In this document: piece after piece, positions 40,507-59,231 of the stretch | Layout: each line of letters starts with the position of its first letter | Numbering within the stretch: position 1 is the stretch's first letter | Assembly (NCBI RefSeq): GCF_001570585.1 | Contig: NZ_BBXF01000005.1 | Coordinates: 806,001-870,000 of the forward strand | Length of the DNA stretch: 64,000 bases | Reading direction: 5' to 3' | Source of the DNA: Herbidospora daliensis | Lineage (GTDB): Bacteria > Actinomycetota > Actinomycetes > Streptosporangiales > Streptosporangiaceae | Notes under the pieces: model-generated | The model's input: only the letters and a program-made list of their open reading frames with translations | Database searches by the model: none | What the model was told of the DNA's origin: nothing | Translations under genes and position numbers: made by a program

Positions 40507-40518
40507 GCCGCTACGTTG

Positions 40519-41961: not shown

Positions 41962-42044
41962 TGATCCTTACTACCGGATTTATCGGCTGATATCGTCTCG
42001 GGTCAGGAAAGCATCGCGTACCACTGACAGTACGGGAGGCTAGC

Positions 42045-43049
42045 TTGACACCTGATTTCGCCGGTCACGCCAGGATCATGGCCCTCGCCGACCTGGTCAC
42101 CCCGATGAGCGTGCGGACCGCCGTCACCCTCCGCCTCGCCGACCATCTCGACACGGGCGACCGCACCGCCGACGACCTCGCCGAACACACCGGCACGGCC
42201 CCGCGCCCGCTCCGCAAGCTGCTCGACCACCTCGTCCACCTCGGCCTGCTGCGCGCCGAGGACGGGCGCTACGGCCTCACCGACCTGGGCCGGCTGTTAC
42301 GCCGCGGCGACGCGCCGATGGGCCCGTTCGACCAGCTCGACCTCGACACGGTGCTGGGCCGGACCGAGTTGTCGGCCGTGCACCTGCCGCACAAGCTGCG
42401 CACCGGCCGGTCGGTCTACCACGGCATGTACGGCACCGACCTGTGGAGCCACGTCGATCAGGCGCAGGGCACCCCCGAGGCGCTGTCGGCCCAGCTCGCG
42501 GTGCCGCCGGGGTTCGACGTCGAAATTCTGCTCGACCACCCCGTCCTCGCGCGGGCCCGGACGGTCGTGGACGTCGGCGGCAACACCGGCGCCCTCGTCG
42601 AGGCCCTTCTCACGAAACATCCGGATCTGTCGGCGACGCTGATCGACCTGCCGAGCTTCGCCGGGGCCGCCGCGCGGCGGTTCGCCTCGGCCGGGCTCGG
42701 CGACCGGGCCACCGCCCTCGGGCAGGACTTCTTCGAACCCCTCCCCCCGGCCGCCGACGTGTACGTCCTGTCGGCGGTGCTGGCCGACTGGGACGACGAG
42801 GCGGCCGTCCGGCTGCTGCGCAACTGCGCGCTCGCGGCGGGCGACACCGGCCGCATCCTCGTCTCGGAGGTGAGCCTCACCGAGCGGCTGCGCCACGTCG
42901 ACACCGGCATGACCCTGTGGTTCGAGGCCGTGATGGAGAACCCCGACCGCTCCCCCGACGACCTCGCGGCGCTGGCGGCCGAGGCGGGGCTGAAGGTGGC
43001 GGCGGTCGACCGGGCGGGCACCCGGATCGTGCTGGAACTCCATGGCTGA
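42045..43049 (+). CDS. SAM-dependent O-methyltransferase (COMT/ASMT type)
   Basis: Encodes 334 aa from TTG 42045, chosen for GGGAGG five nt upstream. The N-terminal winged-helix dimerisation domain (ADLVTPMSVRTAVTLRLADH, PLRKLLDHLVHLGLL) precedes the methyltransferase fold with SAM motif VVDVGGNTGALVEALL and later YVLSAVLADWDDEAAVRLLR. Such enzymes methylate hydroxyls of aromatic polyketides or related small molecules. It overlaps the FAD monooxygenase gene by 8 nt, making a tailoring pair without a visible backbone synthase. Confidence 0.9.
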   Translation: MTPDFAGHARIMALADLVTPMSVRTAVTLRLADHLDTGDRTADDLAEHTGTAPRPLRKLLDHLVHLGLLRAEDGRYGLTDLGRLLRRGDAPMGPFDQLDLDTVLGRTELSAVHLPHKLRTGRSVYHGMYGTDLWSHVDQAQGTPEALSAQLAVPPGFDVEILLDHPVLARARTVVDVGGNTGALVEALLTKHPDLSATLIDLPSFAGAAARRFASAGLGDRATALGQDFFEPLPPAADVYVLSAVLADWDDEAAVRLLRNCALAAGDTGRILVSEVSLTERLRHVDTGMTLWFEAVMENPDRSPDDLAALAAEAGLKVAAVDRAGTRIVLELHG

Positions 43050-44523
43050 GCCGGTGGACCACGACGTCGTGGTGGTCGGCGGCGGGCCCGTGGGGCTGAT
43101 GACCGCGTGCGAACTGGCGCTGGCCGGGGTGCGGGTGGCGGTGGTCGAGCGGCGCACCGAGGTCGACCCGACGATCAAGGCGATCGGGCTGCACATCCCC
43201 TCGGTCGAGGCGTTCCAGCGGCGGGGGCTGCTGCCCGCGCTGCTCGACGCGCAGCGGCGGCAGGCGCAGGAACTGCTCGCCGCCCTCCCCCGCCGGGCCG
43301 ACTTGGCCCGGGTGCCCGTCTCCTCCGACATCGCGGGGCACTTCGCCGGCCTCACCGTCCCGCGTTCGCTGGTCGACTACGCCGACCCCGACTTCGGGGC
43401 GGCCTGGTCGCGGGACATGATGCCGGTGAGCCAGCAGGCGCTGGAGGCCATCCTCTCCGAACGGGCCGCCGCCCTGGGGGCCGAGCTGCGGCAGGGCGCC
43501 GAGATGGTGAAGTTCGCCGACGACGGCGACGGGGTCGACGTCGAGCTCGACTCGGGCGAACGGTGGCGGTGCGCCTGGCTGGTGGGGGCCGACGGAGGGC
43601 GCAGCGCGGTCCGGCGCGGCGCGGGGTTCGACTTCCCCGGCACCGACCCGGAGATCACGGGCCACCAGGCCGTGGTGGAGTTCGCCGACCCGGAGGTGCT
43701 GACTCCGGGGTGGAACCGCACCGGGAACGGCGTCTACGTCTACACGCCGCTGCCCGGCCGCATCCTGACCGTCGAGATGGACGGCCCGCCGCCCGACCGG
43801 ACCGCGCCGGTCACCCTCGCGGAGCTGCAGGACAGCGTCCGGCGGGTGTCCGGGACCGGGGTCACGATCACGAAGGTGCGGTCGGCAACCCGGTTCACCG
43901 ACCACGCGCGGCAGGCGAGCACCTACGTCAGAGGGCGGGTCGTGCTCGCGGGCGACGCCGCCCACGTCCACTCGCCGTTCGGGGGGCAGGGGCTGAACCT
44001 CGGGCTGGGCGACGCGCTGAACCTCGGCTGGAAGCTCGCCGCGACCGTGCGGGGGTGGGCGCCTGCCGGGCTGCTGGACACCTACACGCGCGAACGCCAC
44101 CCGGTCGGGGCGTGGGTGCTCGACTGGACGCGGGCGCAGATCGCGCTGATGCGGCTCGACCCCCTCACCGAGTCGCTGCGCCGCATCGTCGGCGACCTCA
44201 TCGCCACCCCGAGCGGCGCGACCTACACGGCGAAGCAGTTGTCGGGGGTGCTGCAGAAGTACGACCTGCCCGGCGACCACCCGCTGGTCGGATGCAGCGC
44301 GCCCGACCCCGGCGGCCACGTCGCCGAGGCCCTCCAAAGCGGCAAGGCGGTCGTCACCGGCCCGGCCGGAGCCGGGGCCGCTCGGGCCGACCGCCTGGTG
44401 CACGTGGAGTCCGACCGGCCGATGCTGGTCCGTCCCGACGGCTACGTCGCCTGGGCCGCCGAGGATCCCGGCGACACGGCCGGGCTGGAGGAGGCGCTGC
44501 GCCGCTGGCTCGGCGGGTCATGA
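43042..44523 (+). CDS. FAD-dependent aromatic monooxygenase
   Basis: Encodes 493 aa. Group A flavoprotein hydroxylase motifs: VVVVGGGPVGLMTACELALA (dinucleotide binding, ~9-28), the DG motif WLVGADGGRSAVRRG, and the GD motif VVLAGDAAHVHSPFGGQGLN. A C-terminal thioredoxin-like tail is short. The family hydroxylates aromatic compounds, and one branch (Rox) modifies rifamycins; the sequence alone does not decide. Start ATG 43042 lies inside the methyltransferase end, so the two are co-translated. Its 3' end overlaps convergent pepN by 6 nt. Confidence 0.88.
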   Translation: MAEPVDHDVVVVGGGPVGLMTACELALAGVRVAVVERRTEVDPTIKAIGLHIPSVEAFQRRGLLPALLDAQRRQAQELLAALPRRADLARVPVSSDIAGHFAGLTVPRSLVDYADPDFGAAWSRDMMPVSQQALEAILSERAAALGAELRQGAEMVKFADDGDGVDVELDSGERWRCAWLVGADGGRSAVRRGAGFDFPGTDPEITGHQAVVEFADPEVLTPGWNRTGNGVYVYTPLPGRILTVEMDGPPPDRTAPVTLAELQDSVRRVSGTGVTITKVRSATRFTDHARQASTYVRGRVVLAGDAAHVHSPFGGQGLNLGLGDALNLGWKLAATVRGWAPAGLLDTYTRERHPVGAWVLDWTRAQIALMRLDPLTESLRRIVGDLIATPSGATYTAKQLSGVLQKYDLPGDHPLVGCSAPDPGGHVAEALQSGKAVVTGPAGAGAARADRLVHVESDRPMLVRPDGYVAWAAEDPGDTAGLEEALRRWLGGS

Positions 44524-47007
44524 CGAACGGTCGGCGGCACGGGCGGCCAGCGCCCGTGCCAGCCGGGCCCGCCCCTCCGCCACGAGCCTGGCCAGCGCAG
44601 GCGGCGGGGCGGCCTGGGTGAGCCACTCGCCGACGGCGTCGATCGTGGGCTGGTTTACGGCCCACGAGGGGAACAGCACCATCGCCGGGCCGTGGGCGCC
44701 CTCGCCCCGCCGCCGCCACACGCCGGCGATCTCCGCCAGGTAGCGGGCGGCGTACGGGCGCAGCAGGTGCTTCTGGGCCGGGTGGGCGAAGCCGCCGATC
44801 ACGGCTTCGACGGTCGCGCCGGGCAGGCTCTCGTCGTGCATGGCCCGCCGCCACGCCTCCTCCTTGTGGCCGGGCCGCAGCGCGCGGGCCCGTTCGGCCT
44901 GCGAAGGGCCGAGGAAGGCCGGGCCCCGGGCGAGTTCCGCCTCGATCTCGGCGTCTCCGGCGACGCCGTGGGCCACCAGCGCCTGCACGATCCGCCAGCG
45001 CGTCAGCGGGTCGACGGGCTGCTCCAGCCAGTCGCGGACGTGCGCGAGCTGGGGTTCGTCCAGGACGCCGACCAGCAGCGCGTTCACCACCACATGGTGG
45101 CGGTCGGAGCCGGGCTCGGCGGCGTCGGCCTGCCCGATCAGCCAGGCGGCGTGCGCGCGCCAGCCGACGGGCGACCACTCCGGGTCGGCGTAGGTGTCGA
45201 GGGCGGCGTGCGCCTGCTGGAGCAGCCGCCGCGACACGCCGGTGTCGGTCTCGGCGGCCAGCCCCCGGTGGACGAGGGCCACGTAGTCGCGGGCCCGGAA
45301 CTCGGCGTCGCGGGTCATCTCCCACACCGCCGACCAGGCCAGCGCCCTCGGCAGCGGGTCGGCCAGGTCGCCGATCCGGTCCAGGACGGCGGCCCGGGAC
45401 GCGGGGTCGAGGCGGATCTTGCAGTAGCCGAGGTCGTCGTCGTTGACCAGCACGAGCACGCCGCTGGGGTGGCCGACCAGCTCGGGGGCCTCCGTGCGGG
45501 CCCCGCCGACGTCGAGCTCCTGCCGGTGGATCCGCACCAGCCGCCCGTGGCCGTCGTCGTCGTAGACCCCGACGGCGACGCGGTGGTCGCGCAGCAGGCC
45601 GGCCGTCTGCTCGACGGCGAACGCGGTGAACCGCCCGTCCTCGTCGGCCGACCAGACCGGGCGCAGGGTGGCCAGGCCGGTGGTCTCCAGCCACTGCCCG
45701 CTCCAGGCGGACAGGTCGCGTCCGGACGCCTTCTCCAGCGCCGCCAGCAGGTCGCGCAGCGTCGCGTTGCCCCACGCGTGGGCGGCGAAGTAGCCGCGCA
45801 GCCCGGCGAAGAAGTCGTCCCTGCCCACGCGGGCGACGAGCTGCCGCAGCAGGGCGGCTCCCTTGGCGTAGGTGATGCCGTCGAAGTGCACGGCCGCCGC
45901 CTCGACGTCGGGCACGTCGGCCGCGACCGGGTGGGTGGTGGGCAGCTGGTCCTGCTGGTAGGCCCACGCCTTCTGGAGGTTGGCGAAGGCGGTCCAGGCG
46001 TGCGGGTGCCCGCCCGTCTCGGCCTGGGCCAGCACGCTCATGTACGTCGCGAACGCCTCGTTCAGCCACAGGTCGTCCCACCACGTCATGGTGACGAGGT
46101 CGCCGAACCACATGTGGGCCAGCTCGTGCAGCACGGTCTCCTCGCGGGCCCGCAGGTCGTGCTCGGCTACGTGGCCCTGGAAGAGCATGTCCTCCTGGTA
46201 GGTGACGCAGGCGGCGTTCTCCATGGCGCCGGCGGTGAACTCCGGGACGAAGCACTGGTCGTACTTGGCGAAGGGGAAGGGCACGCCGAAGGTGTCTCGG
46301 TAGTAGGCCAGTCCGCGCCGCGTCTGGGCGAACAGGCGCTCGGCGTCCATGTGGGGGGCCAGGGAGGCCCGGCAGTAGAGCGCCAGCGGGATGTCGTCGT
46401 CGGCGCGCCATTCGGCCCACGGGCCCGCCACGACGGCCACCAGGTAGGCGGGCAGCGGCGGGGTCTCGGCGAAGTGGTGGCGGCGGGCGCCGTCGCCGAG
46501 GGTCTCGACGTGCCGGACGGGGGTGGTGGCGCGGACCGTCCACGACGCGGGCGCGGTCACGGTCAGCGTGTAGGGCGTCTTGAGGTCGGGCTGGTCGAAG
46601 CAGGCGAAGACCCGTTTGGCGTCGGCCGGCTGGAAGTGCGTGTAGAGGTAGACCGCGCCGTCGGCGGGGTCGGTGAAACGGTGCAGTCCCCGGCCCGACC
46701 CGCTGTAGGCGCAGCGGGCCCGCACGGTCAGCTCGTTGTGCGCGGCCGTGCCCGGCAGCACGATGCCCTCGGCGGGGTCGTACCGGCTCAGGTCGAGCGG
46801 GCGTCCGTTCAGGACGGCCTCGTCGGCCGACCGGGCCACCAGGTCGATCCACGACGCCTCGCCGGGCCGCCGGCCGGCGAAGCGGACCGTGGTGACGGAG
46901 GTGAAGTCGTCGTCGCCGGTCAGGTCGAGCGCGACGTGACAGGACTCCACGGCGATCAGCCCGGCACGATGGCGGGCCTGGTCCCTGGTCAGATTGGGTG
47001 TGTCCAC
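44518..47007 (-). CDS. pepN: M1 family aminopeptidase N
   Basis: Encodes 829 aa from GTG 47007, selected for GAGGT five nt upstream; an extension to 47196 would run into the precursor peptide promoter. The exopeptidase motif GAMEN is at 260-264, the zinc site HELAHMWFGDL at 294-304 with third ligand Glu317 (LNEAFATYM), and an ERAP1-like C-terminal domain follows. The length is typical of actinobacterial cytosolic PepN. It removes N-terminal residues from peptides. It diverges from the lanthipeptide precursor gene across 182 nt; a role in trimming leader remnants is conceivable but speculative. Confidence 0.93.
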   Translation of the reverse strand: MDTPNLTRDQARHRAGLIAVESCHVALDLTGDDDFTSVTTVRFAGRRPGEASWIDLVARSADEAVLNGRPLDLSRYDPAEGIVLPGTAAHNELTVRARCAYSGSGRGLHRFTDPADGAVYLYTHFQPADAKRVFACFDQPDLKTPYTLTVTAPASWTVRATTPVRHVETLGDGARRHHFAETPPLPAYLVAVVAGPWAEWRADDDIPLALYCRASLAPHMDAERLFAQTRRGLAYYRDTFGVPFPFAKYDQCFVPEFTAGAMENAACVTYQEDMLFQGHVAEHDLRAREETVLHELAHMWFGDLVTMTWWDDLWLNEAFATYMSVLAQAETGGHPHAWTAFANLQKAWAYQQDQLPTTHPVAADVPDVEAAAVHFDGITYAKGAALLRQLVARVGRDDFFAGLRGYFAAHAWGNATLRDLLAALEKASGRDLSAWSGQWLETTGLATLRPVWSADEDGRFTAFAVEQTAGLLRDHRVAVGVYDDDGHGRLVRIHRQELDVGGARTEAPELVGHPSGVLVLVNDDDLGYCKIRLDPASRAAVLDRIGDLADPLPRALAWSAVWEMTRDAEFRARDYVALVHRGLAAETDTGVSRRLLQQAHAALDTYADPEWSPVGWRAHAAWLIGQADAAEPGSDRHHVVVNALLVGVLDEPQLAHVRDWLEQPVDPLTRWRIVQALVAHGVAGDAEIEAELARGPAFLGPSQAERARALRPGHKEEAWRRAMHDESLPGATVEAVIGGFAHPAQKHLLRPYAARYLAEIAGVWRRRGEGAHGPAMVLFPSWAVNQPTIDAVGEWLTQAAPPPALARLVAEGRARLARALAARAADRSS

Positions 47008-47189
47008 GGGCGACCTCGGCGCGTCGACGATGATCGTTTCCGGGCAGCCGTCACGGGTGTTTCGCGGCCCCCGACGTTTTATTAATAACACGGAAACTGG
47101 CAGAAACGGACTTACTTCTCCGTTGACATGTTCTGGACAGATGTGGTCTTCTGCCTCTAGCCCACCCCTAATAGGAAGGTGAGTCAGGT
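47008..47189. promoter_or_regulatory. Divergent promoter region of pepN and the lanthipeptide locus
   Basis: An unusually AT-rich patch for this genome includes the perfect palindrome TTATTAATAA (47079-47088) and, nearer the precursor gene, a consensus -35 TTGACA (47123-47128). No good -10 is found at 17-18 nt; the sequence there is GTCTTCT. GGAAGGTGAG precedes the precursor ATG. The cluster promoter is probably here, possibly needing an activator because of the poor -10. Confidence 0.5.
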
Positions 47190-47522
47190 ATGACATCTGT
47201 TACAGCGACACTACCCGCAGTAGAGGAGAGAACAGCCGATCCGCAGGTCATGAAGGACGTCAACGACGCCCTCATGGGAATTTCGGGATTCGCGGAGTTC
47301 AGCGCCGCGACCAACGGATTCCTCAAGGGCGACGTCGACGTGGAGCAGGCGCTCGAGGCCATGGCCCCGTTCCTGCGCGGCGAGATCTGCCGCGACGAGG
47401 CCGACCGCGAACGCATGATCCAGCTCGGCCAGACCATCGAGGCGAAGTGCGGCTGGGCGTCGGTCATCGCCACCCTCACCGCCTGCACGGCCGCCTTCAG
47501 CTGCTCGGGTTTCTGCTGCTGA
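47190..47522 (+). CDS. Lanthipeptide-like precursor peptide 1
   Basis: Encodes 110 aa. The leader is acidic and probably helical, with the element GFLKGDVDVEQALEAMAPFL. The last 24 residues (87-110) have Cys at segment positions 1, 13, 19, 23 and 24, and Thr14, Ser18 and Ser20; the end reads CTAAFSCSGFCC. The same spacing recurs in two other small proteins of this locus. The Ser/Thr/Cys-rich tail next to a kinase/lyase/cyclase system marks it as a substrate for lanthionine formation. The cleavage site is not evident (no GG/GA immediately before the core). A poor -10 suggests regulated expression. Confidence 0.88.
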   Translation: MTSVTATLPAVEERTADPQVMKDVNDALMGISGFAEFSAATNGFLKGDVDVEQALEAMAPFLRGEICRDEADRERMIQLGQTIEAKCGWASVIATLTACTAAFSCSGFCC

Positions 47523-47537
47523 GAAGCCCGGCGCGAC

Positions 47538-47562
47538 CGCTCCACCCGCTCCACCGCTCCAC
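47538..47562. repeat. Three copies of CGCTCCAC
   Basis: CGCTCCAC occurs at 47538-47545, 47547-47554 and 47555-47562, just after the stop of precursor 1. It may be simple sequence slippage or a protein-binding array. No coding role is seen. Confidence 0.5.
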
Positions 47563-47714
47563 CTGTGCGAACTCCGCCCTTCCACCGCGTTCACGGGCCC
47601 TTCTCCTCGGCCCGGCGCCGCGAGTCGTACAGAAGAAAGACCGCCCTTTCATGTCGGCGGCGCAATTCTGCGAGTGTACGTAGATGACAGGCTCAAAACA
47701 GTGATCGGTACGCC

Positions 47715-47746
47715 GGAATCCGCCTGGGATTTCCTGGGCGGATTCC
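47715..47746 (+). promoter_or_regulatory. Stem-loop between precursor genes 1 and 2
   Basis: GGAATCCGCC (47715-47724) and GGCGGATTCC (47737-47746) form a perfect 10-bp stem with a 12-nt loop, 31 nt upstream of the precursor 2 start. No T tract follows, so it is more likely an mRNA processing or stability element, or an operator, than a terminator. The rest of the 255-nt gap (47523-47777) shows no supported gene. Confidence 0.6.
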
Positions 47747-47777
47747 CGAGCATGCCCAATGATAAAAGGGAAATGCG

Positions 47778-48071
47778 GTGCCCGAGGGCTACGACATTCT
47801 TGAGCAGATCAATCTCGAACTGAAGAGCATCGACGGAGCCGCCGATTACCGGGCCGCCGCGCTCGGATTCATCAAAGGCGACCTGGAGCTCGACGACGCG
47901 ATCGAGGCGATGACGCGCGTCCTGCACGGCGACGGCTACGGCAACGCCGACCACCGCAAACGCATCATCGAGCTCGCGCAGACCGCCGAGGAGCGCTGCG
48001 GCTTCGTCACGATCACGGTGAGCATCGCGGGCTGCACCGCCGCGTTCAGTTGCTCCATGGGATGCTGCTGA
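47778..48071 (+). CDS. Lanthipeptide-like precursor peptide 2
   Basis: Encodes 97 aa from GTG 47778 with AAAAGGGAAA upstream. The leader shares with precursor 1 the element LGFIKGDLELDDAIEAM and the downstream pattern HRKRIIELAQTAEERCG. The C-terminal 24 residues (74-97) have Cys at segment positions 1, 13, 19, 23 and 24, Thr14, Ser18 and Ser20, and end CTAAFSCSMGCC. Eight of the twelve terminal residues of precursor 1 (CTAAFSCS) are identical. It lies directly before the kinase gene (16-nt gap). Confidence 0.88.
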   Translation: MPEGYDILEQINLELKSIDGAADYRAAALGFIKGDLELDDAIEAMTRVLHGDGYGNADHRKRIIELAQTAEERCGFVTITVSIAGCTAAFSCSMGCC

Positions 48072-48087
48072 CCCGATCGGAGATACT

Positions 48088-49221
48088 TTGAACGCCGACC
48101 CCGCCGACGTCGTCGTCCGGGCCGATCGGCTCACCGCCGAGAAGTCCGTCTTCACCGCCGGCCGGCCCGTGCTCGACGAGGTGGCGGCCGTCCGCGCCCT
48201 CGCCGGGCACGGCGTGCTGAGCCCCGGCCAAACCCTGGATCCCCGGCTGGCCGTCGTCGACGAGTCGCGCCGCTGCCGGTGCCTGATCGTCCGGCTGGGC
48301 GACGCCGGCTGGGTGGTCAAACAGGGCACCTCCGCCGAGACCCAGGAGACCCTCGACCGCGAGGCGGCGGTCTACCGCGTGCTGCGCGGCTCCACGTTCG
48401 CGCCCTACCTGCCGCGTTTCTCCGCCTTCGACGACCGCGCCGGCCTGCTGGTGACCGAGTTCGTCGACGGGCGGGCGCCCCGCGACGCCCACATCGACGA
48501 CCCGGCCCGGCGGCAGATGACGGCGGTCGGGATCGGCGCGGCGCTGGCCCGGCTGCACACCGTCGCGGGCGACGGCGGCCTCCCGGCGCTGGAGGCCCCG
48601 CCCATCCTCCGCTGCGGCCACCCCACCCTCGACTCCATCGAGTTCCACAGCCCGGCGTCGCTGGAGGTGGTCAGGACCGTCCAGGCCAACCCGGCGCTGT
48701 CGGAGCTGCTCGACGGCGTGCACGCCCAGTGGCGCGCCGACGCGATGGGCCACGGCGACCTGCGCGGCGACAACATCCTCATCCGGCCCTCGGGCGAGCC
48801 CGTCTTCATCGACTGGGAGATGGGCGGCCCCTGCGACCGCCGCTGGGACGTCGCCGGCCTGCTCACCGAACGCATCGTGTGGTGGCTCACCGACCCCGAC
48901 GCGTGGGTGCCGATGGAGGCGCAGGCCACCGCGAACGCGGCGGCGGCCGAGGGGCTGCGCGAGATCCGCGAGTTCGCGCACGCCTTCCTCGGCAGCTACG
49001 TCGTCACCTACGCGGGCGAGCTCGACCTCGCCAAGGCCGGCCTCGACGACCTGATGCGCTGGTGCGGCGCGCGGCTGGTGCAGTTCGCCGTCGAGCAGAC
49101 CCACCAGCGCAGCGTGCCGCTGGCGACCTCACGGCAGCTCCTGCAGATGGCGGCGAACTTCCACACCACCCCCGGCGTCGCCGCCCGGACCTTCTTCGGA
49201 TTGGCGATCAGCGATGGATGA
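48088..49221 (+). CDS. APH-fold phosphotransferase, lanthipeptide Ser/Thr kinase (LanK-like)
   Basis: Encodes 377 aa from TTG 48088 with CGGAGA upstream. The aminoglycoside-phosphotransferase kinase fold is visible: Lys78 in GWVVKQG, Glu92 in DREAAVYRVLRG, the catalytic loop GHGDLRGDNILI (His222, Asp224, Asn229) and the metal-binding IDWEMGG (Asp242). In class V lanthipeptide and thioamitide pathways such proteins phosphorylate Ser/Thr of the precursor before elimination by a HopA1-like lyase. The gene overlaps the lyase-cyclase gene by 8 nt and follows two precursor genes, which supports that role rather than antibiotic resistance. Confidence 0.85.
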   Translation: MNADPADVVVRADRLTAEKSVFTAGRPVLDEVAAVRALAGHGVLSPGQTLDPRLAVVDESRRCRCLIVRLGDAGWVVKQGTSAETQETLDREAAVYRVLRGSTFAPYLPRFSAFDDRAGLLVTEFVDGRAPRDAHIDDPARRQMTAVGIGAALARLHTVAGDGGLPALEAPPILRCGHPTLDSIEFHSPASLEVVRTVQANPALSELLDGVHAQWRADAMGHGDLRGDNILIRPSGEPVFIDWEMGGPCDRRWDVAGLLTERIVWWLTDPDAWVPMEAQATANAAAAEGLREIREFAHAFLGSYVVTYAGELDLAKAGLDDLMRWCGARLVQFAVEQTHQRSVPLATSRQLLQMAANFHTTPGVAARTFFGLAISDG

Positions 49222-51385
49222 CAACCGGGAGACCGTCGCCGCCGCGCTGGCCGCCGCGACCGTCTCGCCGACCTACGACCTGGCCTGGTTCGGCGAGGTC
49301 GTCGACACGATCCGGCCGCTGCCCGACGAGGCCATGATGCGGGAGGCGGCGGGCTCCTTCGTCAGCCGCCTGCTCTACCGGGGCTGCTACCTGTTCGGCC
49401 GGCCGCGCCGCGAGGTGGCCGCCTTCCGCGAATCCATCATGGAGGGCCTCCCCTCGACCCGGTCGGCCCGGTTCGTCAACGCCGCCGTGTACGCCGGCTC
49501 CCGCGTCGCCCCCACCTCCCGGCGGCTCCCCCTGGTCACGACCGGCGCCGAACCGCTGATCGACCTGGAGGGCGTCCGGGTCAGGCTCAGCCTCCCCGGC
49601 CCGGCCGAGCACGTCGAGGTGCACATCCCCGGCGTCTCGGTGACCAAGTCGCCCGGGTTCGTGCTCTTCCGCAGCCCCCACGGCCAGCCCGGCGCCGACG
49701 GCCAGCGGCTGGTGCGCGTCTACTGGAACCTGGCGGCCGCCGGGGCGGTCGGCCTCATCGACCCCCTCACCCGGCTGGTCGGCGACCTGCCCTACCACTT
49801 CAAGGTCGTGCACGCCGACGCCGACTGGCCCGAACGCGCCGACAGCGCCGTGCTCTACATCGGCCACGAGGACCTCGCCCGCGTGTGGCCGGGCCTGCGC
49901 GACCTCCACCGGCGGTCGCTGCCGATGATGCGGCCGTACGTCCCGGCGCTGACCCGCAGGGCCGGTCTGGGGCTCGGCGTCGCCGAGGACCCGGGCGGCG
50001 GCGAGAGCTACGGCATGTTCGTCTGCGAGCGCATCGCCGAGGGCCTCATGCGCGCCCACGCCGAAGGGAGCGCCGACCGGGACCTCCAGCTCGCCTACGT
50101 CGCCGAGGCGTTCGCGAAGACCGGCCGCTCCCTCGCGGTCCCCCACGCGACCGCCGAGGTGGCCGCCCTCCTCGACGACCTCACCGGCGCGACCCCCTCG
50201 GCCGGGCCGGTCGCCCCGGGCGGGCTGACGGGCGAGGCCGAACGGCTCGCCCGGCGCATGGCCGCCGACGCGCTGACGCACGGCGACCGCTGCACCTGGC
50301 TCAAGCCCCACCCCGACATCGGCGGCCGGGCCGGGTGGGTGCCGATGGGCGCCGACGTCTACGACGGCACCGCCGGCATGGCCCTGTTCCTGGCCCAGCT
50401 GCCCGACCCCGCGTTCACCGGCCTCGCCGCGAAGGCGGCCCGGCACGCGCTGGCGGCCGCCGCCGACCTGCCGGGCCCCGGCCTCTACAGCGGCGTCTCG
50501 GGCGCCGGCCTCGCCGTGGCGCTGGCCGGACGCGCGCTCGGCGACGCCGACCTGGTCGAGCGCGGCTTCGCCCTGGTGGACGCCGCCGCCCGCGACGCGA
50601 TCGGCGGCACGGGCCCCGCCGACGTCATCGACGGGACGGCCGGCGCCCTGCTGGCGGTCCTGGCCGCCCATCGCCTCGGCAACCCGACCGGCCTGCGCCT
50701 GGCCGCCGACCTGGGCGCCACCCTGATCGGCCAGGGCGACGACACCGGCGGCACGTTGTCGTGGACCCCCGGCTTCGTCGGCTACGCCCACGGGGCGGCC
50801 GGCTGCGCGCTCGCCCTGGCCGACCTGGCCGAGGCGACCGGCGAGCCCGCCTTCCTGGCCGCGGCCAAGAGGGCGGTCGCCTACGAGCGCACCTGGTTCC
50901 ACGACGGCAACTGGCGCGACGCCCGCACCGCCCACGAGCGCGGGCCCGACGGCGACCTGACCCTCGAACCCGACGTCAACCGCTACGACTGGTGCTACGG
51001 CGCACCCGGCATCGCCCTCACCCGCACGAGGCTGGCCCCGCACGAGGCCGCGACCGGTTTCGCGGCCGCCCGCCGCGCCGCCGTCACCCACCCCGCGCTC
51101 GTCTACGACATGTGCGTGTGCCACGGGTCGGCCGGCATCGCCGAGATCCTCTCCCTCGCCCCCGCCGATCTCGCCGATGACGGCGACGGCGACCTGGCCC
51201 GCGACCTGACCCGCCGCGCCCTGGACGCCCACCACGACGACCTGGCCTGGCCCCGGGGCTACGGCCTCATGCTCGGCGCCGCCGGGGTCGCGCTGGCCGC
51301 GCTGCGCCGCGACGACCCCGCGCTCGTCTCACCGCTGCACCTGACCCGCCCGTCTTCACCCGAGGAGGCCCCCCGTGGACGCTGA
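49214..51385 (+). CDS. HopA1-like lyase domain fused to LanC-like cyclase
   Basis: Encodes 723 aa. Residues ~100-310 resemble the HopA1 effector family (RLVRVYWNLAAAGAVGLIDP, then PYHFKVVHADADW and RADSAVLYI), which acts as phospho-Ser/Thr lyase in class V lanthipeptide and thioamitide pathways. Residues ~340-705 are a LanC alpha-toroid with repeated glycine motifs (DGTAGMA 384-390, YSGVSGAGLA, DGTAGALL) and the active site: His526 in GYAHGAAG, zinc ligands Cys594 (WCYGAPG) and Cys636-His637 (VCHGSAG). The protein would eliminate phosphate and then close thioether rings. Fusing these two steps is unusual. The third precursor gene begins 11 nt before its stop. Confidence 0.85.
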   Translation: MDDNRETVAAALAAATVSPTYDLAWFGEVVDTIRPLPDEAMMREAAGSFVSRLLYRGCYLFGRPRREVAAFRESIMEGLPSTRSARFVNAAVYAGSRVAPTSRRLPLVTTGAEPLIDLEGVRVRLSLPGPAEHVEVHIPGVSVTKSPGFVLFRSPHGQPGADGQRLVRVYWNLAAAGAVGLIDPLTRLVGDLPYHFKVVHADADWPERADSAVLYIGHEDLARVWPGLRDLHRRSLPMMRPYVPALTRRAGLGLGVAEDPGGGESYGMFVCERIAEGLMRAHAEGSADRDLQLAYVAEAFAKTGRSLAVPHATAEVAALLDDLTGATPSAGPVAPGGLTGEAERLARRMAADALTHGDRCTWLKPHPDIGGRAGWVPMGADVYDGTAGMALFLAQLPDPAFTGLAAKAARHALAAAADLPGPGLYSGVSGAGLAVALAGRALGDADLVERGFALVDAAARDAIGGTGPADVIDGTAGALLAVLAAHRLGNPTGLRLAADLGATLIGQGDDTGGTLSWTPGFVGYAHGAAGCALALADLAEATGEPAFLAAAKRAVAYERTWFHDGNWRDARTAHERGPDGDLTLEPDVNRYDWCYGAPGIALTRTRLAPHEAATGFAAARRAAVTHPALVYDMCVCHGSAGIAEILSLAPADLADDGDGDLARDLTRRALDAHHDDLAWPRGYGLMLGAAGVALAALRRDDPALVSPLHLTRPSSPEEAPRGR

Positions 51386-51701
51386 GCCGCCGCCCAGGCC
51401 GCAGTACGACCTGAACGCCCTGCTCGTGGAGCTCGAACGGTCGTGGTCGACGGTGCCCGGCATCGACGACTTCGTCGGCTCGGGCGCGGCCTTCGTCAAG
51501 GGCGAGGAGGCCGACCTGGAGAAGACCGTCGACCGCATGATGTCGTTCTTCAACGGCGAGATCGGCGGCTACTCCACCGAACGCCAGCGGCTCGTGCTGC
51601 TCGCCCAGAACATGCGCAAACGCGCCGGCGGCGTGCCGATCGTGCTGCTCACGTTCACCACCTGCACCGAGGTGCTCTCCTGCTCCTACGCCTGCTGCTA
51701 G
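51375..51701 (+). CDS. Lanthipeptide-like precursor peptide 3
   Basis: Encodes 108 aa from GTG 51375 with GAGGAGG seven nt upstream; the start lies inside the end of the cyclase gene, so it is translationally coupled. The leader carries AAFVKGEEADLEKTVDRMMS, matching the [FLIV]KG[DE] element of the other two. The C-terminal 24 residues (85-108) have Cys13, Cys19, Cys23, Cys24, Thr14, Ser18 and Ser20 but lack the first Cys (Gly instead), and end CTEVLSCSYACC. It is more divergent than precursors 1 and 2, so the product may differ in topology. Its stop codon abuts the stop of the convergent permease. Confidence 0.85.
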   Translation: MDAEPPPRPQYDLNALLVELERSWSTVPGIDDFVGSGAAFVKGEEADLEKTVDRMMSFFNGEIGGYSTERQRLVLLAQNMRKRAGGVPIVLLTFTTCTEVLSCSYACC

Positions 51702-53114
51702 CTACCCGGCGATCACGGTCTGCAGGAGGGCCAGCCCCGCCAGCAGCGCCGGGCCGCGCACCAGCTGGAGGATCAGCCCCAGGGGCGTCGGGCCGAACAG
51801 CCCGACGTCCACGAGCGGGCTGGCGTAGTCGAGCGGCGGGCGGGTCGCCACCCGGTAGGTCACCGCCAGCGCGCCGACGGCCGACACGGCCGCCGTGAGG
51901 AGGGACAGGCCGGGCACCAGCGCCCAGGTGACGGCCGACCAGACCACCGCCCCGGCCGCCGGGACCGCCAGGAACGCGAGCGTCAGCATCAGATCGGAGC
52001 CGCCCATCGCCCGCCGGATCGACGGAGAACGCGATATGACCCGCAATCCGGCCGCCAATCTGTCGACGGCCGCGAATGCCGTCACCGTGTGAAGGGCGGG
52101 CAGAAAAGCCTCCAGCCCGACGACATAGGCGCCATAAGGCACGGAAATCAGCGCCGCCCATATGAAGAATCCCGTCGGCATGCGCCGGATTCGCGCCAGG
52201 TCGCTTTTCACCGACGCGGTGAAAAGATTTCCGCTTATCGCCGCCGGACGCACCCGCGCCACCGACCGCGCCCGCCGTTCGAGCACGATCGACCAGAACA
52301 TCGTCACGTCGAGGGACAACACCGACACGTGGGTCGCGGTGGCCAGTTCGGCGCCCGACGACACCTTCCCCCGCGTCATCGCGCCGAGGCCGCGCCGGGC
52401 CCACTCGGCCGCCGCCACCGCCGCCGCCAGCGCGACCACCGCGGCCACCGTGAACGGCGGCGACCCGGCCGACTCCAGCCCGGTCAGCGTCAGGCCGGGC
52501 CGCAGCACCAGCACCGCGACCGCCACGGCCACCAGCGCGTAGGCGGCCACGCTCAGCCGGCGCTGGACGCCGGCGACCGGCCGGTCACCGGCCTGGACCC
52601 GCACGCACACGCAGGTCAGCACCACTCCGGCCGCCACCCAGCAGGCCACCCACGCCACGACCGGCACCGACAGGCGGGTCACCGCGAGGAAGACGAACCC
52701 GACGAGCGCGCCTGTCACCGCCCCCACGGCCAGCGCCGCCGCCAGGTGCCCGCGCAGCAGGGCGCCGCGGTCGACGGGCGTGCTGAGCAGCCACGTGCGC
52801 GCCGCAGAACCGGCGTAGAGCGGGCCGAACGCGAGCAGCCCCTTGGCCAGCAGCACCAGGCACACCACGGCCAGCACCGCCGCCGTGAGCTGCACGACCG
52901 AGGCGCGCACCAGGTCGGGCACGCCGCCGCCGTCGATGCGCGCCACCCCGGCCTCGGTGACCTCGACCACCAGCCCGCCGAGGATGCCCAGGTAGATGAG
53001 GCGCTCCAGGAGCATCGAGAGCAGGAAGCCCAGCGGGCGACGCGGCCTTCGGGCCCGCCGGCGGTGGCGGAGCTCGGCGGCCCGGGGCGGCGCCTGGACC
53101 TGGAGGACCGTCAT
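51702..53114 (-). CDS. ABC transporter permease-like membrane protein of the lanthipeptide locus
   Basis: Encodes 470 aa. Start ATG 53114 overlaps the ATPase stop by 4 nt. A basic N-terminus (~15-26, rich in Arg) precedes about 10-12 hydrophobic segments. It resembles the uncharacterised actinobacterial DUF6297-type permeases more than standard ABC-2 proteins. With the ATPase it would export the mature peptides or protect the producer. Its stop codon lies back to back with that of precursor 3, with no base between them. Confidence 0.75.
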   Translation of the reverse strand: MTVLQVQAPPRAAELRHRRRARRPRRPLGFLLSMLLERLIYLGILGGLVVEVTEAGVARIDGGGVPDLVRASVVQLTAAVLAVVCLVLLAKGLLAFGPLYAGSAARTWLLSTPVDRGALLRGHLAAALAVGAVTGALVGFVFLAVTRLSVPVVAWVACWVAAGVVLTCVCVRVQAGDRPVAGVQRRLSVAAYALVAVAVAVLVLRPGLTLTGLESAGSPPFTVAAVVALAAAVAAAEWARRGLGAMTRGKVSSGAELATATHVSVLSLDVTMFWSIVLERRARSVARVRPAAISGNLFTASVKSDLARIRRMPTGFFIWAALISVPYGAYVVGLEAFLPALHTVTAFAAVDRLAAGLRVISRSPSIRRAMGGSDLMLTLAFLAVPAAGAVVWSAVTWALVPGLSLLTAAVSAVGALAVTYRVATRPPLDYASPLVDVGLFGPTPLGLILQLVRGPALLAGLALLQTVIAG

Positions 53115-53752
53115 CCGGCCACCTCGATCGTCCGGTCGGCCACCGCGTCGATCAGTTCGTGGTCGTGGGAGGTGAACAGCACGGCCACGCCTGCCGCCTT
53201 CTCCTTCTGCAGCCGGTCGGCCAGCCAGGCCCGGCCGGTCACGTCGAGCCGCTGCTCGGGTTCGTCGAGCAGCAGCAGCCGACGCGGCCTGACCAGGCAC
53301 GACGCCAGCCCGAGCCGATGGCGCTGGCCGCTCGACAGGGTGATCGGGAGCTGGTCGGCAGCCCCTTCGAGGTCGAGGTCGCGCAGGGTGGCCGCCACCA
53401 GGCCGCCGGGGTCTTCGGAGCCGTGGGCCCAGGCGTAGAGGGCCAGGTGGTCGACGACCGACATGTCGGGGAAGTAGTCGACGTCGTCGAGCAGGGAGGC
53501 CATCGCGGCCCGGACCGCCGGGTCGGACTCGCGCAGCGGGACCCCGTCGAACTCGACCAGCCCCTCGTCGGCGTCCTCGACCCCGGCGACGCACCGCAGC
53601 AGGGTGGTCTTCCCCGACCCGTTCGCCCCGACGACCGCCACCGCCTCACCGGCCCGGAGGTCGAAGCCGACGTCGTTCAGCACCGGGAGCCGGGAATAGG
53701 ATTTATGCAGACCGGACACGCGCAGCAATGCGGATGGGGCCGTTGCGCTCAT
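53111..53752 (-). CDS. ABC transporter ATP-binding protein of the lanthipeptide locus
   Basis: Encodes 213 aa, a single ABC domain: Walker A GANGSGKT (42-49), signature ITLSSGQRHRLGLASCLVRP, Walker B RLLLLDEPEQRLD and the H-loop FTSHDHELID. The GAGGAG ribosome site lies 11 nt before ATG 53752. Further upstream TACAAT on the coding strand is a good -10 candidate. It is transcribed opposite to the precursor and enzyme genes, from its own promoter, as expected for a separately controlled export or self-protection pump. Confidence 0.9.
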   Translation of the reverse strand: MSATAPSALLRVSGLHKSYSRLPVLNDVGFDLRAGEAVAVVGANGSGKTTLLRCVAGVEDADEGLVEFDGVPLRESDPAVRAAMASLLDDVDYFPDMSVVDHLALYAWAHGSEDPGGLVAATLRDLDLEGAADQLPITLSSGQRHRLGLASCLVRPRRLLLLDEPEQRLDVTGRAWLADRLQKEKAAGVAVLFTSHDHELIDAVADRTIEVAG

Positions 53753-53845
53753 CGGGGATTACGCTCCTCAATCGTCCGGAGATGCCGTATCGCTAATGTG
53801 CTCAATTGCCGTCGGCGTGATTGTAACCGAATTCGAGAAAGCGCG

Positions 53846-53880
53846 AAGGGCCGCTCCGCGATGAACGCGGAGCGGCCCTT
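53846..53880. terminator. Perfect 15-bp hairpin terminator
   Basis: Arms 53846-53860 and 53866-53880 are perfectly complementary around the 5-nt loop ATGAA. It follows the stop of the small membrane gene on the minus strand and precedes the ABC transporter promoter, so it insulates the two units. T-rich runs flank it modestly on both sides. Confidence 0.8.
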
Positions 53881-53892
53881 TACAAAGTCAGG

Positions 53893-54060
53893 TCACTTCC
53901 TGAGACTCCACGTGGTGCCGTAGCCGCCCAGGTGCAGAGCCAGGAACACGGCGCCGGCGATGGTCAGCGTGGTCACGGTCAGGACCGCGCCGACGGCGTA
54001 GCCGCCGATCGCGAAGACGAGGGCGACGAGGAACAGGACAGCGGCGAGCAGAGCGAACAT
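53893..54060 (-). CDS. Small hydrophobic membrane protein
   Basis: Encodes 55 aa from ATG 54060, set by GGAGGT five nt upstream. Two hydrophobic stretches (FALLAAVLFLVALVFAIGGY and VLTVTTLTIAGAVFLALHLG) are followed by a short polar tail GGYGTTWSLRK. I do not recognise a family. It stands alone between the lanthipeptide transporter and helY and ends at a strong hairpin. A longer in-frame extension to 54129 lacks a ribosome site. Confidence 0.7.
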   Translation of the reverse strand: MFALLAAVLFLVALVFAIGGYAVGAVLTVTTLTIAGAVFLALHLGGYGTTWSLRK

Positions 54061-54193
54061 CCGGACCTCCGGGGGGCGTGGGGTGTTACATAGCGGATTT
54101 CCGCCGGGTAACACCCGGAATCTCCCCACGGGGATACGGTGGGCGAACGAACCACTACCCGCGCCTGACCGGCCGGTCAGTTCGCCCCCGGCC

Positions 54194-56902
54194 CTACGTC
54201 AGCGACGAGTAGGCCACCACCCCGCGCCGCATGGCGTCGATCGCCTTCGTCGAGGTCTCGCGCACCTTGCTGCCCTTGGGCGCGGCGTCGCGCAGCTGGC
54301 CCAGCAGGTCGAGCAGCTGCTTGATCCACCGTACGAAGTCGCCCGCCGCCAGGTCGTTGTCGGTCAGCACCGCGTCGAGGGTGTGGCCCTTGGCCCAGCG
54401 CCAGGCCGCCCACGCGAAACTCATGTCGGGCTCGCGGGTGAACGACAGGTCGTGGTCCTGCTCGACGGCCTCCAGGTCGGCCCACAACTTCACCATCGAC
54501 GCCAGCGCCTCCTTCGCGGCCCCGGCCGGGACACGGGGGCTGCGGTTGTCGTCGGTCTGGCGTGATTCGTACACCAGGGACGAGACGCAGGCGGCCAGTT
54601 CGGCGGCGTCGAGCTTCTCCCAGATGCCGCCGCGCAGGCACTCGGCGGTCAGCAGGTCGAGCTCGGTGTAGAGCTTGGCCAGGCGGCGGCCCTCGTCGGT
54701 GACGGTCTCGCCCTCGAGGTAGCCCAGCTGGTCGAGGATGCCGCAGACCCGGTCGAAGGTGCGGGCGATGACGTGGGAACGCCCCTCGACGCGGCGGCGC
54801 AGGCCCTCGGTCTCGCGCAGCAGCTTGTAGTAGCGCTCGGCCCAGCGGGCGTGGTCTTCGCGCTCGTCGCAACCGTGGCAGGGGTGCTGGCGCAGCTCGC
54901 GGCGCAGCCGCAGGATCTCCTCGTCCTCACCGGCGTGGTCGCGGGCCCGCACCGGCTTGCCCAGGTCGACGTCGCCGAGCTTGGCGTGCATGGTGGCGAC
55001 CAGGTTGGCCCGCTCCTTGGGGCTGCGGGCGTTGAAGTTGCGCGGCACCCGGATGTGCTCGACCGGCTCGACCGGCACCGGGAAGTCGGCCGGGGTCAGC
55101 TTCTTGACCTGCTTGCCGACCGTCAGCACCAGCAGCGACGGGCCCTCGCCGCGCACGCTCACCCCCGGGTCGAGCACGACGGCGAGCCCGGCCCGCCGCC
55201 CGCCGGGGACGCGGATGACGTCGCCGACCTTCAGCACCTCCAGGCTCTGCACCGCCTGGGCCCGCCGGGCCGCGCCGCGCTGCTTGGACAACTCGGCCTC
55301 GCGGTCGGACAACGCCCGGCGCAGCGCGGCGTATTCGGGGAAGTCGCCCAGGTGGCAGGTCATCGCGTCCTTGTAGCCCTGGAGCGCGTCTTCGTGCTTG
55401 CGCAGCTGACGCGCCAGCCCGACCACCGCGCGGTCGGCCTGGAACTGGGCGAAGGAGTCTTCGAGCAGGGCCCGCGCCCGCTCGCGGCCGACCTGGCCCA
55501 CCAGGTTCACGGCCATGTTGTAGGAGGGCCGGAAGCTGGAGCGCAGCGGGTAGGTGCGGGTGCTGGCCAGGCCCGCGACGCCGATCGGGTCCATGCCCGG
55601 CTGGTAGACGACCACCGCGTGGCCCTCGACGTCGATGCCGCGGCGGCCGGCCCGGCCGGTGAGCTGGGTGTACTCGCCCGGGGTCAGGTCGGCGTGGGTC
55701 TCGCCGTTCCACTTGTCGAGCTTCTCGATGACGACCGAGCGGGCCGGCATGTTGATGCCCAGGGCCAGCGTCTCGGTCGCGAAGACCGCCTTGACCAGGC
55801 CCTTGGTGAACAGCTCCTCGACGACCTCCTTGAAGGCCGGGAGCATGCCCGCGTGGTGGGCGGCCAGGCCGCGCTCCAGGCAGTCGCGGAAGTCGAGGTA
55901 GCCGAGCACCGCGAGGTCTTCGTCGGGCAGGTGGGCGGTGCGCTCGTCGACCAGCTGGCGGATCTCGTGGCGCTCCTCGTCGGTGGTCAGCCGCAGGCCG
56001 GCGTACAGGCACTGCTTGACGGCGGCGTCGCAGCCCGCGCGGGAGAAGATGAACGTGATGGCCGGCAGCAGGCCCTCGGCGTCGAGGCGCTCGATGACCT
56101 GGGCGCGGTCGTGGGGGGTGCGCCGGGGGCGGTTGTAGCCGCGTTTGCCGCGCACCTGGTTGAGGCGCTGCTCGTCGCGGGAGATGCGCATCAGGTTGGC
56201 GTTGATGCGGGTCGCGCCGTCTTCGTTGGCGAACAGGTCGAAGAGGCGGTTGCCGACCAGCATGTGCTGCCACAGCGGCACCGGGCGGTGCTCGTCGACG
56301 ATCACCGTCGTGTCGCCCCTGACCGCGCCCAGCCACTCGCCGAACTCCTCGGCGTTGGAGACCGTGGCCGACAGCGCGACCACGCGCACCGACTCGGGCA
56401 GGTGGATGATCACCTCTTCCCAGACCGCGCCGCGGAAGCGGTCGGCGAGGTAGTGGACCTCGTCCATGACCACGTAGCCGAGGCCGCTGAGGGTCTGGGA
56501 GCCCGCGTAGAGCATGTTGCGCAGCACCTCGGTCGTCATGATGACGATCGGGGCGTCGCCGTTGACGCTGTTGTCACCGGTCAGCAGACCCACGTTGGCC
56601 GCGCCGTAGCGCCGCACCAGGTCGTTGAACTTCTGGTTCGACAGCGCCTTGATGGGCGTCGTGTAGAAGCACTTGCGGCCCTGCTCCAGGGCCAGGTGGA
56701 CGGCGAACTCGCCGACCACGGTCTTTCCCGACCCTGTCGGGGCCGCCACCAGCACGCCGTCTCCGGCCTCCAGCGCCTGGCAGGCGTCGAGCTGGAACTC
56801 GTCGAGCTCGAAGTCGTACAACCCGCGGAACGAGGTGAGCGCAGGGCCCGACTCGGTCTGCTGGTCACGGAAGGCGGCGTAGCGTTCCGCAGGCGTGCTC
56901 AT
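54194..56902 (-). CDS. helY: Ski2/Mtr4-like DEVH-box RNA helicase HelY
   Basis: Encodes 902 aa. Walker A APTGSGKT (54-61), DEVH box (147-150), SAT motif (VVALSATVSNAEEF) and the helicase C motifs (FATETLALGINMPARSVVIE, QLTGRAGRRGIDVEGHAVVV) are intact. The long C-terminal region includes a KOW-like insert and the DSHCT domain (RTFDRVCGILDQLGYLEGET, FTREPDMSFAWAAWRWAKGH). It likely unwinds structured RNA for decay. Followed downstream on the chromosome order by tatC, tatA, pafC and pafB, as in Mycobacterium (Rv2092c-Rv2096c). Confidence 0.94.
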   Translation of the reverse strand: MSTPAERYAAFRDQQTESGPALTSFRGLYDFELDEFQLDACQALEAGDGVLVAAPTGSGKTVVGEFAVHLALEQGRKCFYTTPIKALSNQKFNDLVRRYGAANVGLLTGDNSVNGDAPIVIMTTEVLRNMLYAGSQTLSGLGYVVMDEVHYLADRFRGAVWEEVIIHLPESVRVVALSATVSNAEEFGEWLGAVRGDTTVIVDEHRPVPLWQHMLVGNRLFDLFANEDGATRINANLMRISRDEQRLNQVRGKRGYNRPRRTPHDRAQVIERLDAEGLLPAITFIFSRAGCDAAVKQCLYAGLRLTTDEERHEIRQLVDERTAHLPDEDLAVLGYLDFRDCLERGLAAHHAGMLPAFKEVVEELFTKGLVKAVFATETLALGINMPARSVVIEKLDKWNGETHADLTPGEYTQLTGRAGRRGIDVEGHAVVVYQPGMDPIGVAGLASTRTYPLRSSFRPSYNMAVNLVGQVGRERARALLEDSFAQFQADRAVVGLARQLRKHEDALQGYKDAMTCHLGDFPEYAALRRALSDREAELSKQRGAARRAQAVQSLEVLKVGDVIRVPGGRRAGLAVVLDPGVSVRGEGPSLLVLTVGKQVKKLTPADFPVPVEPVEHIRVPRNFNARSPKERANLVATMHAKLGDVDLGKPVRARDHAGEDEEILRLRRELRQHPCHGCDEREDHARWAERYYKLLRETEGLRRRVEGRSHVIARTFDRVCGILDQLGYLEGETVTDEGRRLAKLYTELDLLTAECLRGGIWEKLDAAELAACVSSLVYESRQTDDNRSPRVPAGAAKEALASMVKLWADLEAVEQDHDLSFTREPDMSFAWAAWRWAKGHTLDAVLTDNDLAAGDFVRWIKQLLDLLGQLRDAAPKGSKVRETSTKAIDAMRRGVVAYSSLT

Positions 56903-56927
56903 GCCGTCAACCCTACCGATATTCCTG

Positions 56928-58633: not shown

Positions 58634-58669
58634 CCCATGATCCTGTCTCGAAAGAAGGTGCGGCGGGGG

Positions 58670-59014: not shown

Positions 59015-59080
59015 GACACGTCCTTAAGGGGCGGGTGATGCACGTCCTTGCCCGATCGTACGCTGCGATCGCAGTGCTCA

Positions 59081-59230: not shown

Positions 59231-59231
59231 G

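What the first reader, a model, noticed from the sequence alone, without database searches (positions are those of the whole stretch)
48088..51385. Lanthipeptide locus with an APH-like kinase and a fused HopA1 lyase-LanC cyclase
Seen: an APH-fold kinase with intact HGD...N and DWE motifs, overlapping by 8 nt a 723-residue protein whose first half resembles HopA1 and whose second half has complete LanC zinc ligands (Cys594, Cys636, His637) and the catalytic-type His526. Known: class V lanthipeptides (such as lexapeptide, pristinin A3) and thioamitides use separate APH-like and HopA1-like proteins for phosphorylation and elimination; LanKC enzymes combine unrelated lyase, kinase and LanC domains. 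Inference: here the elimination and cyclisation steps of a class V-like route are fused, giving a functional parallel to LanKC built from different folds. No YcaO or LanD gene is present, so a thioamitide or AviCys product is unlikely.
Basis: partly seen in the sequence, partly recalled or inferred. Interest (0 to 1): 0.9.

Follow-up and report, generated by a model that had tools for sequence, protein, structure and literature searches.

The report
Lanthipeptide cluster with fused lyase-cyclase enzyme
A soil actinobacterium carries a small gene cluster that probably makes three ring-bearing peptides, using a kinase and an enzyme in which the two later ring-making steps are fused into one protein; this kind of fusion was predicted in a 2021 paper, and I found no report of it having been tested.

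Summary
48088-49221 encodes an APH-fold kinase; it overlaps by 8 nt a 723-residue protein with a HopA1 domain (residues 146-306, E 2.9e-22) and a LanC domain (377-702, E 4.4e-38). Lyase residues R168, K197, R208, Y215 match those of CaoY; C594, C636, H637 and H526 are intact. Three homologous precursors end in [S/T]xxxC[S/T]xxxSCSxxCC. The order A1-A2-kinase-fusion-A3 recurs in 7 genomes of four genera, beside a PF00891 methyltransferase and an ABC/DUF6297 pair. Kinase plus fusion pairs also lie on Pseudonocardia, Deinococcus and Rhizobium plasmids. Best reading: a class V (Vb-type) lanthionine synthetase with LanY and LanC in one chain. Corrections: LanC-using class V systems are known; LanKC's domains have related, not unrelated, folds; and HopA1-LanC fusions were proposed as an uncharacterised lanthionine synthetase in 2021 (PMC8153245). 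So: a well-conserved member of a predicted, untested kind. No activity, product or structure was tested.

The parts
47190..47522 (+). precursor peptide A1, 110 aa, ending TLTACTAAFSCSGFCC
   Evidence: homologous to A2 and A3, same place in 7 genomes; dN/dS 0.08-0.18
47778..48071 (+). precursor peptide A2, 97 aa (GTG start), ending SIAGCTAAFSCSMGCC
   Evidence: dN/dS 0.06-0.11
48088..49221 (+). LanK-type APH-fold kinase, 377 aa, TTG start
   Evidence: PF01636 E 8.5e-18; best NCBIfam model class V LxmK NF038156 E 1.1e-14, 54.3 bits, below its cut-off of 315; H222, D224, N229, D242
49214..51385 (+). fused LanY-LanC protein, 723 aa
   Evidence: PF17914 and PF05147 in one open frame; same fusion in 7 genomes
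49649..50131 (+). HopA1 (PF17914) domain, residues 146-306, proposed phospho-Ser/Thr lyase; R168, K197, R208, Y215
   Evidence: CaoY counterparts from PMC9486802 (section 6)
50342..51319 (+). LanC domain, residues 377-702, proposed cyclase; C594, C636, H637, H526
51375..51701 (+). precursor peptide A3, 108 aa (GTG start), ending TFTTCTEVLSCSYACC; overlaps the end of the fusion gene by 11 nt
   Evidence: dN/dS 0.18-0.49
51702..52895 (-). DUF6297 protein (PF19814 E 8.6e-61), proposed transporter permease; the true start is probably further upstream, before 53111
   Evidence: beside the cassette in all 7 genomes; also annotated in the Pseudonocardia plasmid locus
53111..53752 (-). ABC transporter ATPase, proposed partner of DUF6297 in export or immunity
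   Evidence: PF00005 E 5.4e-27; with the cassette in all 7 genomes and in the Pseudonocardia locus
42045..43049 (+). PF00891 methyltransferase, proposed tailoring enzyme
   Evidence: E 2.9e-28; with the cassette in all 7 genomes and in the Pseudonocardia locus
43042..44523 (+). FAD-dependent monooxygenase (PF01494), proposed tailoring enzyme
   Evidence: E 4.4e-72; in 6 of 7 genomes in the stretches examined, not in G198
44518..47196 (-). M1 aminopeptidase, a second PepN; candidate leader-trimming protease; start probably nearer 47,000
   Evidence: TIGR02412 E 2.8e-266 from residue 68; another, higher-scoring pepN at C14; beside the cassette in 5 of 7 genomes in the stretches examined

Best explanation
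This is a class V (Vb-type) lanthipeptide cluster whose synthetase is two proteins: a LanK-type kinase and a fused LanY-LanC. [quoted passage not shown] The HopA1-type half removes the phosphate (K197 and Y215 on the alpha proton, R168 on the enolate, R208 helping the phosphate leave, by analogy with CaoY), giving dehydroalanine or dehydrobutyrine. The LanC half holds zinc with C594, C636 and H637, activates the core cysteines and adds them to the dehydro residues, with H526 as acid/base. The core [S/T]xxxC[S/T]xxxSCSxxCC offers four Cys and four Ser/Thr, so up to four (methyl)lanthionine rings. Methylation, an FAD monooxygenase step, leader trimming by the M1 peptidase and export by ABC/DUF6297 would follow. 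Shown here: domains, conserved residues, precursors, synteny, selection. Inferred: every chemical step, ring pattern, tailoring, trimming and export.
For: Domains and motifs. R168, K197, R208, Y215 kept in 31, 31, 32, 31 of 32 LanY domains, with order and spacing close to CaoY R187, K219, R229, Y236; there K219A and R187A abolished or nearly abolished elimination and R229Q impaired it (PMC9486802, section 6). A1-A2-K-YC-A3 syntenic in 7 genomes. The precursor profile hits 8 of 338 family genomes, which include all 7 genomes with the fusion among the 341 searched for it. A kinase of the same type lies immediately upstream in 11 of 11 fusion loci (10 of these 11 kinases went into the profile used, but those of the three plasmid loci also match PF01636 on their own). 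The core pattern [S/T]xxxC[S/T]xxxSC occurs in 23 of 23 precursors of the 8 nearest loci. Unfused K-Y-C neighbours, each in its own frame, exist in related genomes, and the 20 LanC domains from HopA1 loci, fused or not, group apart from 19 other LanC-domain proteins (87/86).
Against: The kinase scores far below the LxmK equivalog cut-off (54 of 315 bits). No leader cleavage site was identified. Three of the seven genus genomes listed lack the fusion. The core pattern is that of the near group only: the candidate precursors of the Rhizobium and G966 loci have other cores, and no clear Cys-rich precursor was seen in the Deinococcus locus. The M1 peptidase and monooxygenase are not found in every related locus. 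A solved-structure search by sequence gave LanC-type hits only for the fusion, none for its HopA1 half, and none for the kinase.
Confidence: 0.85

Rival explanations
1. The proteins dehydrate the precursors, but the product is not a simple (methyl)lanthionine peptide: for instance partly dehydrated, or with unusual residues as in kintamdin, where an APH/HopA1 pair also makes a beta-enamino acid.
For: KinC/KinD do this in kintamdin (PMC9415263, passages); a monooxygenase and methyltransferase next door suggest further tailoring.
Against: A complete zinc-type LanC is fused on, and each of the 21 precursors of the seven genomes has four core Cys with conserved Ser/Thr.
Confidence: 0.08
2. Class Va or thioamitide-type product with an aminovinyl-cysteine made from the C-terminal Cys.
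For: Kinase and HopA1 pair shared with those pathways; the precursors end in Cys.
Against: No flavoprotein or YcaO match on contig C5; only one kinase match to my LanK profile in window 40001-60000; no LanC gene is described in class Va clusters (PMC12291118, passages).
Confidence: 0.03
3. The kinase is an ordinary small-molecule or resistance phosphotransferase and only chances to sit beside the fusion.
For: It belongs to the broad APH family and misses the LxmK cut-off.
Against: A kinase immediately upstream of 11 of 11 fusions in three phyla, with overlapping genes in the 10 loci where I had both starts and stops; its best NCBIfam model is LxmK, ahead of APH(3') (1.1e-14 against 5.1e-6).
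Confidence: 0.04

Closest known systems
HopA1-LanC fusions, with peptide Family 11/20 and Family 22 of HopA1/LanC clusters (PMC8153245, 2021; section 16 read, figures and supplement not seen)
   Same: HopA1 domain near or fused to LanC beside a phosphotransferase, with co-occurring short peptide families; proposed there as a possible new uncharacterised lanthionine synthetase
   Different: The main text does not name Herbidospora or Pseudonocardia, so whether these precursors are its Family 11/20 is open; lyase and cyclase residues, seven-genome synteny and neighbouring genes are worked out here
Class Vb lanthipeptides (mSmoA, cyclase SmoC; from PMC12291118 and PMC12328550, passages; the primary paper PMC9621591 is not held)
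   Same: LanK (PF01636), LanY (PF17914) and LanC
   Different: LanK and LanY are described there as standalone, and PMC10676316 (passages) speaks of three independent enzymes; here LanY and LanC are one chain
Cacaoidin CaoK/CaoY (class Va, PMC9486802, passages and sections 6-7)
   Same: Kinase and HopA1-type lyase with matching residues; PF00891 methyltransferase in both clusters (CaoSC: PMC11447909, passages)
   Different: CaoY is standalone; class Va uses LanD and LanX and has no LanC; different precursors
LanL (class IV) and LanKC (class III)
   Same: Phosphorylation, elimination and cyclisation by kinase, lyase and LanC-type domains
   Different: All three domains in one chain with a PF00069 kinase; LanKC lacks the zinc site (PMC10604976 and PMC9486802, passages)
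LanM (class II)
   Same: Best NCBIfam match of the LanC half (TIGR03897, 160.7 bits, cut-off 304)
   Different: LanM phosphorylates and eliminates in one lipid-kinase-like domain (PMC10604976, passages), not matched here

Membership tests
class V (Vb) lanthipeptide synthetase | APH-family kinase LanK (PF01636) with catalytic residues | tested here: met
class V (Vb) lanthipeptide synthetase | kinase reaches the curated LxmK equivalog score | tested here: not met
   54.3 of 315 bits; the three plasmid kinases also fall short (64.3-104.3 bits)
class V (Vb) lanthipeptide synthetase | HopA1-type lyase LanY (PF17914) with the CaoY residues | tested here: met
   matched by order and spacing, the CaoY sequence itself was not aligned
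class V (Vb) lanthipeptide synthetase | LanC cyclase with zinc ligands | tested here: met
class V (Vb) lanthipeptide synthetase | LanY standing alone, not fused | tested here: not met
   one open frame of 723 codons
class V (Vb) lanthipeptide synthetase | precursor with leader and Ser/Thr/Cys core | tested here: met
   three paralogues; pattern in 23 of 23 of the near group; cleavage site unknown
class V (Vb) lanthipeptide synthetase | (methyl)lanthionine in the product | not testable with these tools
   needs mass spectrometry
HopA1-LanC fusion group of PMC8153245 | HopA1 and LanC in one protein beside a phosphotransferase | tested here: met
HopA1-LanC fusion group of PMC8153245 | precursors belong to peptide Family 11/20 | not tested
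   the sequences are in figures and supplements not available here
class Va lanthipeptides / thioamitides | flavin cysteine decarboxylase, or YcaO, in the cluster | tested here: not met
   no PF02441 or PF02624 match on contig C5; that LanD-type decarboxylases fall in PF02441 is recalled
class II LanM | LanM model over its cut-off | tested here: not met
   160.7 of 304 bits, LanC half only
class III/IV LanKC/LanL | lyase, kinase and cyclase in one chain; model over cut-off | tested here: not met
   51.4 of 575 and 74.3 of 650 bits, LanC half only

The most novel reading that the evidence does not exclude
LanK plus fused LanY-LanC is a distinct, widely spread two-protein class of lanthionine synthetase that hands dehydro intermediates straight from lyase to cyclase, and in this cluster it makes three different, compact, up to four-ringed, methylated and oxidised peptides that act together.
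Probability: 0.15. Interest if true: 0.75.

Novelty: new member of a known kind. Interest (0 to 1): 0.45.

Why it matters
It gives a complete, conserved and tractable test case (two enzymes, three precursors, likely tailoring and export genes) for a lanthionine synthetase architecture that has been predicted but for which I found no characterisation in the library I could search. Fused and unfused versions occur in related genomes, so one can ask directly what joining the lyase to the cyclase achieves.

Tried and rejected
Rejected: artefactual fusion (same open frame in 7 genomes); thioamitide or AviCys product; simple resistance kinase; LanM-type enzyme. Led nowhere: scans of viral contigs with the protein and with the alignment gave no relative; a sigma-70 and terminator scan of 46900-51900 found none; a weak Pfam match of A1 to TMEM65 (E 0.044, under cut-off) was taken as chance. 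A frame of 1040 codons in G966 looked at first like a triple fusion, but the separate kinase lies in another frame there.

Literature: ten searches. Of the papers from which I read passages or sections, only PMC8153245 states the HopA1-LanC fusion; from the listings I recognised no report of a characterised one, but most listed papers were seen only as title and start of abstract. The primary class Vb paper (PMC9621591) and the triantimycin paper (PMC11186320) are not held.

Limits of the counts: the genome searches score only a few candidates per genome (three, two), so fusions are a lower bound. My LanY, LanC and kinase profiles were built from 10 of the 11 fusion loci; L097 and the unfused loci are the independent finds. 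Of the 14 HopA1 places, four are not in the LanY tree: L093 (a 91-codon fragment) and L095 were not carried on, L091 and L096 gave no hit with my profile. The Runella hit (L081) and the Aliiroseovarius plasmids were not in the trees. In G860 the contig ends 274 bases after the LanY frame, so a LanC there could be cut off. The 19 reference LanC proteins were not classified one by one; 16 of the 19 come from LanM-sized frames.
Full report
OBSERVATION. The window lies at G000:C5:806001-870000 of an 8.5 Mb genome; the named relatives found are Herbidospora species, H. galbida carrying the fusion at 93% identity. Pfam gives APH for the kinase (8.5e-18), and HopA1 at residues 146-306 (2.9e-22) plus LanC at 377-702 (4.4e-38) for the fusion. 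Kinase H222, D224 and D242 are kept in 31 of 31 kinases and N229 in 27 of 31.

PRECURSORS AND NEIGHBOURS. Three homologous short genes flank the pair: A1 (47190-47522), A2 (47778-48071) and A3 (51375-51701). [S/T]xxxC[S/T]xxxSC is present in 23 of 23 sequences (21 from the seven genomes, 2 from a Pseudonocardia plasmid), and SCSxxCC ends the 21 but not the 2. The five genes show dN/dS of 0.06-0.49 against three Herbidospora relatives by a simple Nei-Gojobori count, the highest being A3 against L006. The methyltransferase shares its Pfam family with CaoSC, which dimethylates the N-terminus in cacaoidin biosynthesis (PMC11447909, passages). The M1 aminopeptidase is a second pepN copy: another at C14 scores higher against the family model. 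That M1-type proteases trim class III leaders is recalled; PMC8960859 passages name AplP only as a reported class III protease.

DISTRIBUTION. With the protein as query, 7 of 341 family genomes hold the full fusion: four of the seven genus genomes listed, and one each in three other genera (56-59% identity). In all seven the order is A1-A2-kinase-fusion-A3. A profile of the precursors hits 8 of 338 family genomes: those seven, and G140, where a precursor-like piece lies beside ABC/DUF6297 matches in pieces and no kinase, LanY or LanC was found. In a class sample the fusion profile had full-length matches in 3 of 394 genomes, all of the same family. In a phylum sample HopA1 is found in 13 of 396 genomes (14 places); in two of these genomes, the own genome and G966, LanC lies in the same frame. 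Plasmids carry fusions in Pseudonocardia (with homologous precursors, methyltransferase, DUF6297 and ABC), Deinococcus and Rhizobium. No plasmid record matched at least 80% of the window's protein; the relatedness is distant (about 30-36% identity). The G966 locus has two paralogous Cys-bearing short genes beside the kinase, and the Rhizobium locus one, with cores unlike those here; in the Deinococcus locus no clear precursor was seen. In 11 of 11 fusion loci a kinase is immediately upstream.

UNFUSED RELATIVES AND HISTORY. Five family loci (L031-L035) and L036, L037, L099 have kinase, LanY and LanC as three adjacent genes in different frames; in L031, L033, L034 and L035 a 95-residue Cys-rich precursor candidate lies upstream. 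G274 (contamination given as 7%) holds both a fused and an unfused set. On a LanC tree the 20 domains from HopA1 loci (11 fused, 9 not) form one group apart from 19 other LanC-domain proteins (87/86; 88% of 200 bootstrap trees), while fused and unfused forms interleave, with at least two changes of state forced by well-supported branches; on the LanY tree one origin is not ruled out. Several rows are long-branched, so deeper positions are unsure.

LYASE HALF. Aligning 32 LanY domains, R168, K197, R208 and Y215 of the window protein are kept in 31, 31, 32 and 31 rows. I equate them with CaoY R187, K219, R229 and Y236 by order and spacing (29, 11, 7 here; 32, 10, 7 in CaoY); the CaoY sequence itself was not available. 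In CaoY, K219A and R187A abolish or nearly abolish elimination and R229Q weakens it (PMC9486802, section 6).

MECHANISM. The best reading is phosphorylation by the kinase, elimination by the HopA1 half and zinc-dependent ring closure by the LanC half of the same chain. Each core of the 21 precursors has four Cys, and the four pattern positions for Ser/Thr would allow up to four rings; the ring pattern is inference. Methylation, oxidation, trimming and export are inferred from gene neighbourhood only.

WHAT IS KNOWN. Class V synthetases use LanK and LanY; a class Vb subgroup uses LanC for the rings (PMC12291118, passages; PMC12328550 and PMC10676316, passages). [quoted passage not shown] it names peptide Family 11/20 in HopA1-LanC clusters. 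The present cluster fits that description; whether it is one of those listed could not be seen. Class VI is a different, Streptococcus system (PMC10676316, passages). In ten searches of the held library I recognised no characterised fusion; that does not cover most subscription papers, including the primary class Vb paper.

VERDICT.

Noticed in passing
G000:C8:25027-25578 (L096, L098): The same genome has a second, weaker HopA1 match (E 4.1e-11), with a YcaO match about 14 kb away at C8:39705; possibly another RiPP cluster.
   Followed up: partly
44518-47196: The M1 aminopeptidase beside the precursors is a second pepN copy; a higher-scoring pepN lies elsewhere in the genome. Candidate leader protease.
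   Followed up: partly
L101 (G140:C1, about 485 kb): A precursor-like piece (A3 type, 72% identical over 71 residues) with ABC and DUF6297 matches in pieces and no kinase, LanY or LanC found: looks like a decayed remnant.
   Followed up: partly
L079 (Rhizobium johnstonii pRlX3): The kinase and HopA1-LanC fusion lie near a cupin-like gene and a 1064-residue protein annotated lantibiotic dehydratase: possibly two dehydration systems close together.
   Followed up: no
L005, about 8990-9040: The linker between the two domains holds a short VAPG-type tandem repeat in H. yilanensis, the only one of the seven compared, and is the most length-variable stretch of the fusion.
   Followed up: no
L031, L033, L034, L035: Near-identical three-gene (unfused) K-Y-C clusters with a 95-residue Cys-rich precursor candidate occur in four genomes of two genera, suggesting recent transfer or contamination.
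   Followed up: no
L080, L082 (Nostoc and Tolypothrix plasmids): Kinase and standalone HopA1 genes are followed by aldo/keto reductase, peptidyl-prolyl isomerase and exporter genes.
   Followed up: no
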